This document shows positions 10,153 through 27,702 of a stretch of 64,000 nucleotides of DNA, one piece after another. Where the stretch lies: contig CM075942.1 of assembly GCA_038030265.1 (NCBI GenBank), positions 1,116,001 through 1,180,000 of the forward strand. Reading direction: 5' to 3'. The stretch's first letter is position 1. Every line of letters starts with the position of its first letter. Source of the DNA: Corythucha ciliata (Eukaryota > Arthropoda > Insecta > Hemiptera > Tingidae). The translations under genes and the position numbers were made by a program. Under the pieces are notes generated by a model. The model was not told the DNA's origin. It was given only the letters and a program-made list of their open reading frames with translations, and searched no databases.

Positions 10153-10394
10153 AGCTAGCAGCCAAAACTAGCAGCCAAAAAATATATCGATTGTGCGCCA
10201 TTTCGATATAATCGATTATACCGATTATTGGGGATGTACGTCTAGGGGCAGCCAAGGAAGATAATAACAAACTCACAACAACTGGTTCATGTACTTCGCT
10301 ACGTGATTATCATTACTTCAGTGTGTCTAAGAAGGCCTACAATTCATTCCATGATGGGTACACCTCAATTGATCAGAAAAACGTATTTTGACCA
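10153..10394 (+). repeat. outer cap of the left arm
   Basis: This segment is the reverse complement of 27466-27702, with one visible difference (CTTCGCTACG against CTTCGCGACG). It opens with two copies of TAGCAGCCAAAA and contains AT-rich palindromes such as ATAATCGATTAT. It abuts the leader of the BEL element. Confidence 0.88.
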
Positions 10395-13300
10395 AGCAGC
10401 CGCAGTTGAATATGAAGATTGGCCTAAATTGACCTTTGCACAAAGGTAGGGGCTCGAGGAGTGATCGGATCGGAATTTTGACGGTTTCCCTGGATTCCTC
10501 GGTGAAAAATCTAGGACCGACTATTTTTATTTTATTTTTTAAAGTCGAATTTGAGCCCAGCAGCCGCAGTTGAATATGAAGATTGGCCTAAATTGACCTT
10601 TGCACAAAGGTAGGGGCCTGAGGAGTGATCGGATCGGAATTTTGACGGTTTCCCTGGATTCCTCGGTGAAAAATCTAGGACCGACTATTTTTATTTTATT
10701 TTTTAAAGTCGAATTTGAGCCCAGCAGCCGCAGTTGAATATGAAGATTGGCCTAAATTGACCTTTGCACAAAGGTAGGGGCCTGAGGAGTGATCGGATCG
10801 GAATTTTGACGGTTTCCCTGGATTCCTCGGTGAAAAATCTAGGACCGACTATTTTTATTTTATTTTTTAAAGTCGAATTTGAGCCCAGCAGCCGCAGTTG
10901 AATATGAAGATTGGCCTAAATTGACCTTTGCACAAAGGTAGGGGCCTGAGGAGTGATCGGATCGGAATTTTGACGGTTTCCCTGGATTCCTCGGTGAAAA
11001 ATCTAGGACCGACTATTTTTATTTTATTTTTTAAAGTCGAATTTGAGCCCAGCAGCCGCAGTTGAATATGAAGATTGGCCTAAATTGACCTTTGCACAAA
11101 GGTAGGGGCCTGAGGAGTGATCGGATCGGAATTTTGACGGTTTCCCTGGATTCCTCGGTGAAAAATCTAGGACCGACTATTTTTATTTTATTTTTTAAAG
11201 TCGAATTTGAGCCCAGCAGCCGCAGTTGAATATGAAGATTGGCCTAAATTGACCTTTGCACAAAGGTAGGGGCCTGAGGAGTGATCGGATCGGAATTTTG
11301 ACGGTTTCCCTGGATTCCTCGGTGAAAAATCTAGGACCGACTATTTTTATTTTATTTTTTAAAGTCGAATTTGAGCCCAGCAGCCGCAGTTGAATATGAA
11401 GATTGGCCTAAATTGACCTTTGCACAAAGGTAGGGGCCTGAGGAGTGATCGGATCGGAATTTTGACGGTTTCCCTGGATTCCTCGGTGAAAAATCTAGGA
11501 CCGACTATTTTTATTTTATTTTTTAAAGTCGAATTTGAGCCCAGCAGCCGCAGTTGAATATGAAGATTGGCCTAAATTGACCTTTGCACAAAGGTAGGGG
11601 CCTGAGGAGTGATCGGATCGGAATTTTGACGGTTTCCCTGGATTCCTCGGTGAAAAATCTAGGACCGACTATTTTTATTTTATTTTTTAAAGTCGAATTT
11701 GAGCCCAGCAGCCGCAGTTGAATATGAAGATTGGCCTAAATTGACCTTTGCACAAAGGTAGGGGCCTGAGGAGTGATCGGATCGGAATTTTGACGGTTTC
11801 CCTGGATTCCTCGGTGAAAAATCTAGGACCGACTATTTTTATTTTATTTTTTAAAGTCGAATTTGAGCCCAGCAGCCGCAGTTGAATATGAAGATTGGCC
11901 TAAATTGACCTTTGCACAAAGGTAGGGGCCTGAGGAGTGATCGGATCGGAATTTTGACGGTTTCCCTGGATTCCTCGGTGAAAAATCTAGGACCGACTAT
12001 TTTTATTTTATTTTTTAAAGTCGAATTTGAGCCCAGCAGCCGCAGTTGAATATGAAGATTGGCCTAAATTGACCTTTGCACAAAGGTAGGGGCCTGAGGA
12101 GTGATCGGATCGGAATTTTGACGGTTTCCCTGGATTCCTCGGTGAAAAATCTAGGACCGACTATTTTTATTTTATTTTTTAAAGTCGAATTTGAGCCCAG
12201 CAGCCGCAGTTGAATATGAAGATTGGCCTAAATTGACCTTTGCACAAAGGTAGGGGCCTGAGGAGTGATCGGATCGGAATTTTGACGGTTTCCCTGGATT
12301 CCTCGGTGAAAAATCTAGGACCGACTATTTTTATTTTATTTTTTAAAGTCGAATTTGAGCCCAGCAGCCGCAGTTGAATATGAAGATTGGCCTAAATTGA
12401 CCTTTGCACAAAGGTAGGGGCCTGAGGAGTGATCGGATCGGAATTTTGACGGTTTCCCTGGATTCCTCGGTGAAAAATCTAGGACCGACTATTTTTATTT
12501 TATTTTTTAAAGTCGAATTTGAGCCCAGCAGCCGCAGTTGAATATGAAGATTGGCCTAAATTGACCTTTGCACAAAGGTAGGGGCCTGAGGAGTGATCGG
12601 ATCGGAATTTTGACGGTTTCCCTGGATTCCTCGGTGAAAAATCTAGGACCGACTATTTTTATTTTATTTTTTAAAGTCGAATTTGAGCCCAGCAGCCGCA
12701 GTTGAATATGAAGATTGGCCTAAATTGACCTTTGCACAAAGGTAGGGGCCTGAGGAGTGATCGGATCGGAATTTTGACGGTTTCCCTGGATTCCTCGGTG
12801 AAAAATCTAGGACCGACTATTTTTATTTTATTTTTTAAAGTCGAATTTGAGCCCAGCAGCCGCAGTTGAATATGAAGATTGGCCTAAATTGACCTTTGCA
12901 CAAAGGTAGGGGCCTGAGGAGTGATCGGATCGGAATTTTGACGGTTTCCCTGGATTCCTCGGTGAAAAATCTAGGACCGACTATTTTTATTTTATTTTTT
13001 AAAGTCGAATTTGAGCCCAGCAGCCGCAGTTGAATATGAAGATTGGCCTAAATTGACCTTTGCACAAAGGTAGGGGCCTGAGGAGTGATCGGATCGGAAT
13101 TTTGACGGTTTCCCTGGATTCCTCGGTGAAAAATCTAGGACCGACTATTTTTATTTTATTTTTTAAAGTCGAATTTGAGCCCAGCAGCCGCAGTTGAATA
13201 TGAAGATTGGCCTAAATTGACCTTTGCACAAAGGTAGGGGCCTGAGGAGTGATCGGATCGGAATTTTGACGGTTTCCCTGGATTCCTCGGTGAAAAATCT

Positions 13301-25786: not shown

Positions 25787-27465
25787 GTCAATTTAGGCCA
25801 ATCTTCATATTCAACTGCGGCTGCTGGGCTCAAATTCGACTTTAAAAAATAAAATAAAAATAGTCGGTCCTAGATTTTTCACCGAGGAATCCAGGGAAAC
25901 CGTCAAAATTCCGATCCGATCACTCCTCGAGCCCCTACCTTTGTGCAAAGGTCAATTTAGGCCAATCTTCATATTCAACTGCGGCTGCTGGGCTCAAATT
26001 CGACTTTAAAAAATAAAATAAAAATAGTCGGTCCTAGATTTTTCACCGAGGAATCCAGGGAAACCGTCAAAATTCGATCCGATCACTCCTCAGGCCCCTA
26101 CCTTTGTGCAAAGGTCAATTTAGGCCAATCTTCATATTCAACTGCGGCTGCTGGGCTCAAATTCGACTTTAAAAAATAAAATAAAAATAGTCGGTCCTAG
26201 ATTTTTCACCGAGGAATCCAGGGAACCGTCAAAATTCCGATCCGATCACTCCTCGAGCCCCTACCTTTGTGCAAAGGTCAATTTAGGCCAATCTTCATAT
26301 TCAACTGCGGCTGCTGGGCTCAAATTCGACTTTAAAAAATAAAATAAAAATAGTCGGTCCTAGATTTTTCACCGAGGAATCCAGGGAAACCGTCAAAATT
26401 CCGATCCGATCACTCCTCAGGCCCCTACCTTTGTGCAAAGGTCAATTTAGGCCAAGCTTCATATTCAACTGCGGCTGCTGGGCTCAAATTCGACTTTAAA
26501 AAATAAAATAAAAATAGTCGGTCCTAGATTTTTCACCGAGGAATCCAGGGAAACCGTCAAAATTCCGATCCGATCACTCCTCAGGCCCCTACCTTTGTGC
26601 AAAGTTCAATTTAGGCCAATCTTCATATTCAACTGCGGCTGCTGGGCTCAAATTCGACTTTAAAAAATAAAATAAAAATAGTCGGTCCTAGATTTTTCAC
26701 CGAGGAATCTAGGGAAACCGTCAAAATTCCGATCCGATCACTCCTCAGGCCCCTACCTTTGTGCAAAGGTCAATTTAGGCCAATCTTCATATTCAACTGC
26801 GGCTGCTGGGCTCAAATTCGACTTTAAAAAATAAAATAAAAATAGTCGGTCCTAGATTTTTCACCGAGGAATCCAGGGAAACCGTCAAAATTCCGATCCG
26901 ATCACTCCTCGAGCCCCTACCTTTGTGCAAAGGTCAATTTAGGCCAATCTTCATATTCAACTGCGGCTGCTGGGCTCAAATTCGACTTTAAAAAATAAAA
27001 TAAAAATAGTCGGTCCTAGATTTTTCACCGAGGAATCCAGGGAAACCGTCAAAATTCCGATCCGATCACTCCTCAGGCCCCTACCTTTGTGCAAAGGTCA
27101 ATTTAGGCCAATCTTCATATTCAACTGCGGCTGCTGGGCTCAAATTCGACTTTAAAAAATAAAATAAAAATAGTCGGTCCTAGATTTTTCACCGAGGAAT
27201 CCAGGGAAACCGTCAAAATTCCGATCCGATCACTCCTCGAGCCCCTACCTTTGTGCAAAGGTCAATTTAGGCCAATCTTCATATTCAACTGCGGCTGCTG
27301 GGCTCAAATTCGACTTTAAAAAATAAAATAAAAATAGTCGGTCCTAGATTTTTCACCGAGGAATCCAGGGAAACCGTCAAAATTCCGATCCGATCACTCC
27401 TCAGGCCCCTACCTTTGTGCAAAGGTCAATTTAGGCCAATCTTCATATTCAACTGCGGCTGCTTG
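25787..27465 (-). repeat. right array: about 11 copies of the 164-bp unit, inverted
   Basis: The phrase CTTCATATTCAACTGCGG recurs 11 times from about 25803 to 27438, in reverse orientation to the left array. Successive units carry either CTCGAGCCCC or CTCAGGCCCC; in order from 25926 the pattern is G, A, G, A, A, A, G, A, G, A, where G marks CGAG and A marks CAGG. Single-base deletions occur near 26074 and 26224. The array is one third the length of its partner. Confidence 0.93.
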
Positions 27466-27702
27466 GTCAAAATACGTTTTTCTGATCAATTGAGGTGTAC
27501 CCATCATGGAATGAATTGTAGGCCTTCTTAGACACACTGAAGTAATGATAATCACGTCGCGAAGTACATGAACCAGTTGTTGTGAGTTTGTTATTATCTT
27601 CCTTGGCTGCCCCTAGACGTACATCCCCAATAATCGGTATAATCGATTATATCGAAATGGCGCACAATCGATATATTTTTTGGCTGCTAGTTTTGGCTGC
27701 TA
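27466..27702 (-). repeat. outer cap of the right arm, cut by an assembly gap
   Basis: The reverse complement of the left cap, almost identical. It ends at GGCTGCTA directly against the N run, so its end may be cut by the gap and is not necessarily the element terminus. Confidence 0.88.

What the first reader, a model, noticed from the sequence alone, without database searches (positions are those of the whole stretch)
10153..27702. A 17.5-kb FB-NOF-like fold-back transposon outside its classic setting
Inverted arms made of 164-bp tandem units, nearly identical caps and one large intact gene form a complete-looking unit. FB-NOF of Drosophila is the known parallel (established knowledge). Here the unit length and the array size (about 5.3 kb on one side) are much larger than the short FB units of fly elements. 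The near-identity of the caps suggests recent movement (inference).
Basis: partly seen in the sequence, partly recalled or inferred. Interest (0 to 1): 0.88.

Follow-up and report, generated by a model that had tools for sequence, protein, structure and literature searches.

The report
Fold-back transposon with giant satellite arms
This is a jumping DNA element whose ends are long mirrored arrays of a 164-base repeat; the genome holds at least 25 other copies, the one here carries the only intact gene found for its likely transposase, and it probably moved recently, so it may show how mobile elements can breed satellite DNA.

Summary
Near-identical caps (1 of 240 comparable bases differs), inverted arms of about 32.5 and 10.2 units of 164 bp, and one open frame of 1,389 aa form a real transposon. 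The cap occurs at 41 places in the window's own genome (26 elements counting the window). Of 7 independent insertions with both termini recognised, 4 have perfect 9-bp target duplications, 1 matches 7 of 9, 2 share 8 bp. An uninterrupted BEL retrotransposon copy gives the empty site and fixes the left junction to the base. The protein has a DDE-type core, an Ulp1 protease with complete H-D-Q-C residues and a PHD finger. Published Rehavkus elements share the PHD finger, 9-bp duplications and satellite-bearing termini; Rehavkus-1_TC of Tribolium even has a 164-bp unit. Rehavkus therefore fits better than FB-NOF, though no Rehavkus or NOF sequence could be compared. Unit variants tend to be element-specific and shared between arms: arrays likely amplify inside elements. 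New member of a known kind, with unusually long arms and probably recent movement.

The parts
10134..10142 (.). left copy of the expected 9-bp target duplication, AGAATAAAG (right copy would lie in the gap)
   Evidence: other copies have 9-bp duplications at this position relative to the terminus; uninterrupted BEL copy reads through AGAATAAAG
10143..10395 (+). left terminal cap, 253 bp, beginning ACGAAAGTGAAGCTAGCAGCC
   Evidence: cap found at 41 places in the own genome
10396..15720 (+). left arm: about 32.5 units of 164 bp, mostly identical, divergent at the inner end
15723..16791 (+). left interior, upstream of the gene; 769 bp of it also in copy L033
16792..20961 (+). putative transposase gene, 1,389 aa: predicted zinc-binding N-terminal region (C393, C398, H427, H432), DDE-type core (D561, D636, E855), Ulp1/C48 protease (H1172, D1189, Q1233, C1239), PHD finger (1347-1386)
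20962..25785 (.). right interior without a recognised gene; its right part is kept in the deletion-type copies L034 and L035
22063..22628 (.). nested 566-bp palindrome (91% self-complementary) bounded by TA, probably a mariner-type MITE; also present in copy L048
25786..27462 (-). right arm: about 10.2 units of the same 164-bp repeat in inverted orientation
27463..27702 (-). right cap, 240 of the expected 253 bp; the terminal 13 bp are lost in the gap
27703..28202 (.). assembly gap (500 N) hiding the right terminus, the right target duplication and, by inference, the rest of the interrupted BEL element
4520..10142 (-). interrupted BEL/Pao retrotransposon that forms the insertion site: probable 3' LTR from 4520, open frame 4806-10106

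Best explanation
It is a fold-back DNA transposon, most likely an autonomous Rehavkus-type relative of Mutator elements, that likely moves by cut-and-paste using the predicted DDE transposase it encodes. Shown: the caps, the inverted 164-bp arrays, the open frame, the family of capped copies, the 9-bp duplications of relatives and the empty site of this insertion. Inferred: the N-terminal zinc-binding region of the protein recognises the ends, probably the GCAGCC motif that occurs three times in the cap and once in the 164-bp unit, so the arrays would act as reservoirs of binding sites; the DDE core cuts at ACGAAAG and joins into a 9-bp staggered target; short copies without the gene are moved in trans; the C-terminal Ulp1 and PHD domains probably act on SUMO-tagged or modified chromatin proteins at the target or on silencing factors. 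Also inferred: the arrays grow inside each element by unequal exchange or slippage, most likely while the gap left by excision is repaired from a sister copy, with some exchange between the two arms.
Confidence: 0.8

Rival explanations
1. It is a true member of the FB/FB-NOF family of Drosophila, with an enlarged repeat unit.
For: Same overall plan: inverted ends and inverted tandem blocks around a middle region are described for FB (PMC7642927, passages).
Against: FB blocks are made of five 27-31 bp repeats, but the 164-bp unit shows no internal periodicity (observed maximum 0.323 against a shuffle median of 0.335). The PHD finger and the 164-bp satellite termini match Rehavkus descriptions instead. 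NOF could not be compared.
Confidence: 0.1
2. The gene is a passenger: a separate transposon or gene inserted into a non-autonomous fold-back element that is moved by some other transposase.
For: In the parts read, 24 of 25 other copies showed no match to the protein, and one carries a reverse transcriptase instead. A cousin protein on C4 (52% identity) has no array or similar caps within the 9.9 kb read.
Against: A second copy (L048) has the same gene in the same place behind the same cap and array, 98.3% identical over 8,982 columns. Deletion-type copies L033, L034 and L035 keep interior sequence from either side of the gene. A self-comparison of the window showed no second pair of ends around the gene.
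Confidence: 0.12
3. The arms are a chromosomal satellite into which a gene fell, or an assembly artefact.
For: Long homogeneous 164-bp arrays look like satellite DNA, and the copy abuts an assembly gap.
Against: The unit matches listed lie inside capped elements (278 matches, list cut, 40 of 54 candidates scored). Copies on several chromosomes have bounded arrays with target duplications, and the empty site is exact.
Confidence: 0.03

Closest known systems
Rehavkus-1_TC of Tribolium castaneum with satellite TCsat23 (PMC10218199, passages seen)
   Same: DNA transposon with a 164-bp satellite unit in tandem arrays in its inverted termini; several about 95% identical copies in the genome
   Different: 9.5 kb with mostly five and eight monomers, against 17.5 kb with about 32 and 10 here and about 35 and 24 in another copy; unit sequence and protein could not be compared
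Rehavkus group as tabulated in PMC6446971 (section 8 and passages seen)
   Same: 9-bp target duplication, 26-400 bp TIR, one ORF, PHD finger, minisatellite near the terminus; listed hosts are arthropods and annelids (host here not identified)
   Different: that text does not mention Ulp1 (0 occurrences) and places the minisatellite before the 3' TIR
FB / FB-NOF of Drosophila (PMC7642927, passages seen)
   Same: long inverted arms with tandem repeat blocks
   Different: 27-31 bp repeats in blocks of five
Tetris of Drosophila virilis (PMC4079207, passages seen)
   Same: fold-back arms with about 220-bp tandem units behind a terminal domain, 8-10 bp duplications, unit arrays that seed satellite DNA
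   Different: no coding copy found there; here a copy with an intact gene is present
Tm1 of root-knot nematodes (PMC3169594, abstract and passages seen)
   Same: fold-back-like TIRs, 9-bp duplications, mostly non-coding copies with a single coding one
   Different: about 14-bp motif repeats; Phantom-type MULE transposase with FLYWCH domain
Arthropod MULEs surveyed in PMC13359780 (passages seen)
   Same: DDE transposases with TIRs in arthropods
   Different: elements up to 9,972 bp, ORFs up to 1,136 aa, TIRs up to 1,193 bp; Rehavkus served only as outgroup

Membership tests
Rehavkus | 9-bp target-site duplication | tested here: met
   in relatives: 4 of 7 independent insertions with perfect 9 bp, 1 at 7 of 9, 2 with 8 bp; for the window copy only the left side is visible
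Rehavkus | PHD finger in the transposase | tested here: met
   PF00628 E 2.4e-6 at residues 1347-1386
Rehavkus | minisatellite or satellite array at the termini | tested here: met
   same unit length as TCsat23 in Rehavkus-1_TC
Rehavkus | terminal inverted repeat of 26-400 bp | tested here: met
   cap of 253 bp outside the array; with the arrays the inverted repeat is longer
Rehavkus | homology of the catalytic core to Repbase Rehavkus transposases | not testable with these tools
   Repbase is not held; homologues found are unnamed or ant proteins
Rehavkus | unit sequence related to TCsat23 | not testable with these tools
   TCsat23 sequence not in the passages seen
Mutator/MULE superfamily | MULE transposase domain (Pfam PF10551) | tested here: not met
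   no match for the 601-aa core at E up to 5; only the distant homologue P0008 has a weak match, E 0.094
Mutator/MULE superfamily | DDE core of IS256/MULE type with helical insertion | tested here: inconclusive
Mutator/MULE superfamily | WRKY/FLYWCH-like zinc-binding DNA-binding domain | tested here: inconclusive
   weak Foldseek match to a WRKY domain (E 0.48, prob 0.69); C-x4-C and H-x4-H residues present
FB/FB-NOF | blocks of five 27-31 bp repeats in the arms | tested here: not met
   no internal repeat in the 164-bp unit
FB/FB-NOF | NOF-type coding middle | not testable with these tools
   NOF sequence not available

The most novel reading that the evidence does not exclude
The element enlarges its own ends as it moves: each round of excision and gap repair adds 164-bp units that carry transposase-binding sites, so active elements grow satellite-length arms, outcompete shorter relatives for transposase, and then seed satellite DNA when the coding middle decays; the Ulp1-PHD tail would clear SUMO-based silencing at these arrays.
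Probability: 0.18. Interest if true: 0.8.

Novelty: new member of a known kind. Interest (0 to 1): 0.55.

Why it matters
In 2019 very few Rehavkus elements were known, described in Repbase only (PMC6446971, section 8). This genome offers, in one assembly, a copy with an intact gene, an insertion with its empty site, and arms from under one to about 35 units, which makes the question of how transposon termini turn into satellite DNA directly testable: array growth can be read against element age, and the predicted transposase can be tested for binding to the unit.

Tried and rejected
The search for related loci with the protein in genome contigs and viral contigs gave no relative. ARAGORN found no tRNA in the window, so a tRNA-like stretch that I saw by eye near 24.1 kb was not pursued. 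Comparing 1-10200 with 28203-55337 showed no LTR pair across the gap; this fits a BEL 5' LTR that lies in the gap, by inference. A search meant to measure the gap with the right flank did not complete. No empty site was sought for other copies. The host species was not identified; 6 of 8 close BEL homologues are from a pseudoscorpion and 2 are unnamed, which does not settle it. FB-NOF membership, chromosomal satellite and passenger gene are treated as rivals.

Results against the reading: 15 of 25 other elements had only one terminus matched by the pattern, in part because only up to 10 kb beside one cap was read; L033 has discordant flanks; L034, L036 and L042 have one altered end; copy L048 has no right arm or cap in the 16.9 kb read. 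Own-partner caps are closer on average than shuffled partners (12 elements, 0 of 5,000 as low), yet the own partner is strictly the nearest cap in only 2 of 14 elements, with 2 ties. In the statistics without duplicates L040, L041 and L056 were dropped.

Full report
What is there. The window holds inverted arrays of a 164-bp unit at 10387-15722 (32.5 copies) and 25786-27471 (10.3 copies), outside them near-identical caps, and between them one long open frame, 16792-20961, 1,389 aa. The caps differ at 1 of 240 comparable bases. The right cap ends at a run of 500 N. In the left arm 25 consecutive units (2 to 26) are identical; differences gather at the inner end.

Boundary corrected. The 13 bases ACGAAAGTGAAGC (10143-10155) stand before the part of the cap shared with the right side and recur at the ends of other copies. 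The left flank 9700-10142 belongs to a BEL/Pao retrotransposon and occurs at 12 places in the genome counting the window; two others are identical over all 443 bases. One of these, at C7:17394713, read over 131 bases (L061), runs through AGAATAAAG into TCCAGTTACGGTCGCCA (which I take for the BEL primer-binding site, from recall) and then into sequence identical to window 4520-4613 over 94 bases, the probable BEL LTR. The window leaves this sequence exactly after 10142. This is the empty site: the element starts at 10143 and its left target duplication should be AGAATAAAG. The missing right part must lie in the gap, by inference.

A family. The cap was found at 41 places in the window's own 400.9-Mb genome (40 of 51 candidates scored, so a lower bound). 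These make 26 elements counting the window; some are segmental duplicates (L039/L040/L041; L043/L056). I read all 25 others in part or whole. Arms range from no unit to 34.7 units. Of the 25, 10 have a recognised terminus at both ends, representing 7 independent insertions: C7:7617443 (CCTCAAATG), L035 (GATGATTCT), L039 (AATAAAAGA) and L044 (GAGTTCCCA) have perfect 9-bp duplications, L037 matches 7 of 9, L038 and L043 share 8 bp with a one-base shift; 42 mismatched pairings reach at most 5 of 9. L033 has both ends but unlike flanks.

Interiors. Eight of 25 other copies share segments of the window's interior, one of them only 86 bp; as many copies were read only in part, this is a lower bound. 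L048 has it over 8,982 columns at 98.3%, including the gene, which is interrupted by stop codons there. L033, L034 and L035 look like internal-deletion derivatives. The 14.4-kb copy at C7:7617443 has arms of 34.7 and 23.7 units around a 4.3-kb middle that encodes what I read as a Penelope-like reverse transcriptase (my reading of the translation; not searched). Its two caps are identical to each other and to the window's right cap. In the genome, 37 matches to the protein (34 of 198 candidates scored) include one full-length open gene of this family, the window's; 24 of the 37 rows match only over the C-terminal Ulp1-PHD part at 30-50% identity. One of those loci (L060) continues upstream into a protein that looks to me like a SWIM-type MULE transposase; Pfam confirmed only the C48 domain there.

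How it works. Committed reading: cut-and-paste by the encoded protein with a 9-bp staggered cut, in trans for short copies (inferred from the family anatomy). GCAGCC occurs three times in the cap and once per unit, and 0 times in that orientation in the 10-kb interior (twice as its complement); I propose it as a binding motif, untested. Array growth: 210 full units were found in 25 elements; after dropping three duplicates (22 elements) they differ on average by 1.22 per 164 bp within an arm, 1.48 between arms of one element and 2.84 between elements; averaged by element the values are 2.55 (11 elements), 3.59 (9) and 5.41 (231 pairs). For example L045 carries T96G in nearly every unit and G50T in most, the 14.4-kb element shares G66C, G55T and G97T between both arms, and L037 shares G19C and A17G. 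Arrays therefore likely amplify inside single elements, with some exchange between arms. For the caps the support is weaker: own partners are closer than shuffled partners (12 elements, 0 of 5,000 permutations as low), but the own partner is strictly the nearest cap in only 2 of 14 elements, with 2 ties. Longer arrays go with caps closer to the window's (rho 0.66, 41 arms; 0.72, 33 arms); that yardstick is the window's own cap, so this shows either growth in the recently active lineage or loss with age.

Age. Identical caps do not date a DNA transposon. But the insertion is younger than a BEL copy whose flank is still identical to two others, and another element with a perfect duplication carries a cap identical to the window's right one. 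Recent movement is thus likely.

Place among known things. Rehavkus is described as arthropod and annelid elements with 9-bp duplications, 26-400 bp TIRs, a PHD finger and a minisatellite (PMC6446971, section 8 and passages). Rehavkus-1_TC of Tribolium is 9.5 kb with a 164-bp satellite, TCsat23, in its inverted termini, mostly five and eight monomers (PMC10218199, passages). The agreement in unit length is striking, but the sequences could not be compared. FB has 27-31 bp repeats in blocks of five (PMC7642927, passages), and the unit here has no such substructure. Tetris and Tm1 are further parallels. A survey of arthropod MULEs reports lengths up to 9,972 bp and TIRs up to 1,193 bp, with Rehavkus only as outgroup (PMC13359780, passages). 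Eight papers in the held library mention Rehavkus; I opened four and saw the other four only in the listing. The passages seen report no arms of this size and no Ulp1 domain in Rehavkus; Repbase itself was not available. ULP-bearing MULEs are known in plants (recall, with a search listing only).

Verdict. A real fold-back transposon that probably moved recently; FB-like in form, Rehavkus-like in its tested features; a new member of a known kind with exceptionally long arms, useful for the transposon-to-satellite question.

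Noticed in passing
G000 C1, C2, C3, C5, C6, C7; L060:2114-4000: 24 of 37 genome matches cover only the Ulp1-PHD-like C-terminal part of this protein (30-50% identity); one such locus continues into a protein that looks like a SWIM-type MULE transposase by eye, so the Ulp1 tail may be shared between transposon lineages.
   Followed up: partly
L059:2347-6135: Cousin gene on C4, 1,263-aa open frame, 52% identical over the core, with Ulp1- and PHD-like ends by alignment but lacking the stretch around the catalytic E, and with no terminal arrays within the 9.9 kb read; possibly a domesticated or decayed relative.
   Followed up: partly
L031+L032, positions 6385-10683; L042:3037-4167: The 14.4-kb copy carries a reverse transcriptase that I read as Penelope-like instead of the transposase gene; copy L042 has a similar-looking frame.
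   Followed up: partly
window 35674-38371: Gene with DUF4817 (helix-turn-helix, probably mariner-like) flanked by 639-bp inverted repeats, 97% identical.
   Followed up: no
window 22063-22628: Palindrome (91%) bounded by TA, probably a mariner-type MITE, nested in the transposon and also present in copy L048.
   Followed up: partly
window 59884-60576: Open frame with an endonuclease-reverse transcriptase domain (PF14529), probably of a LINE-type retrotransposon.
   Followed up: no
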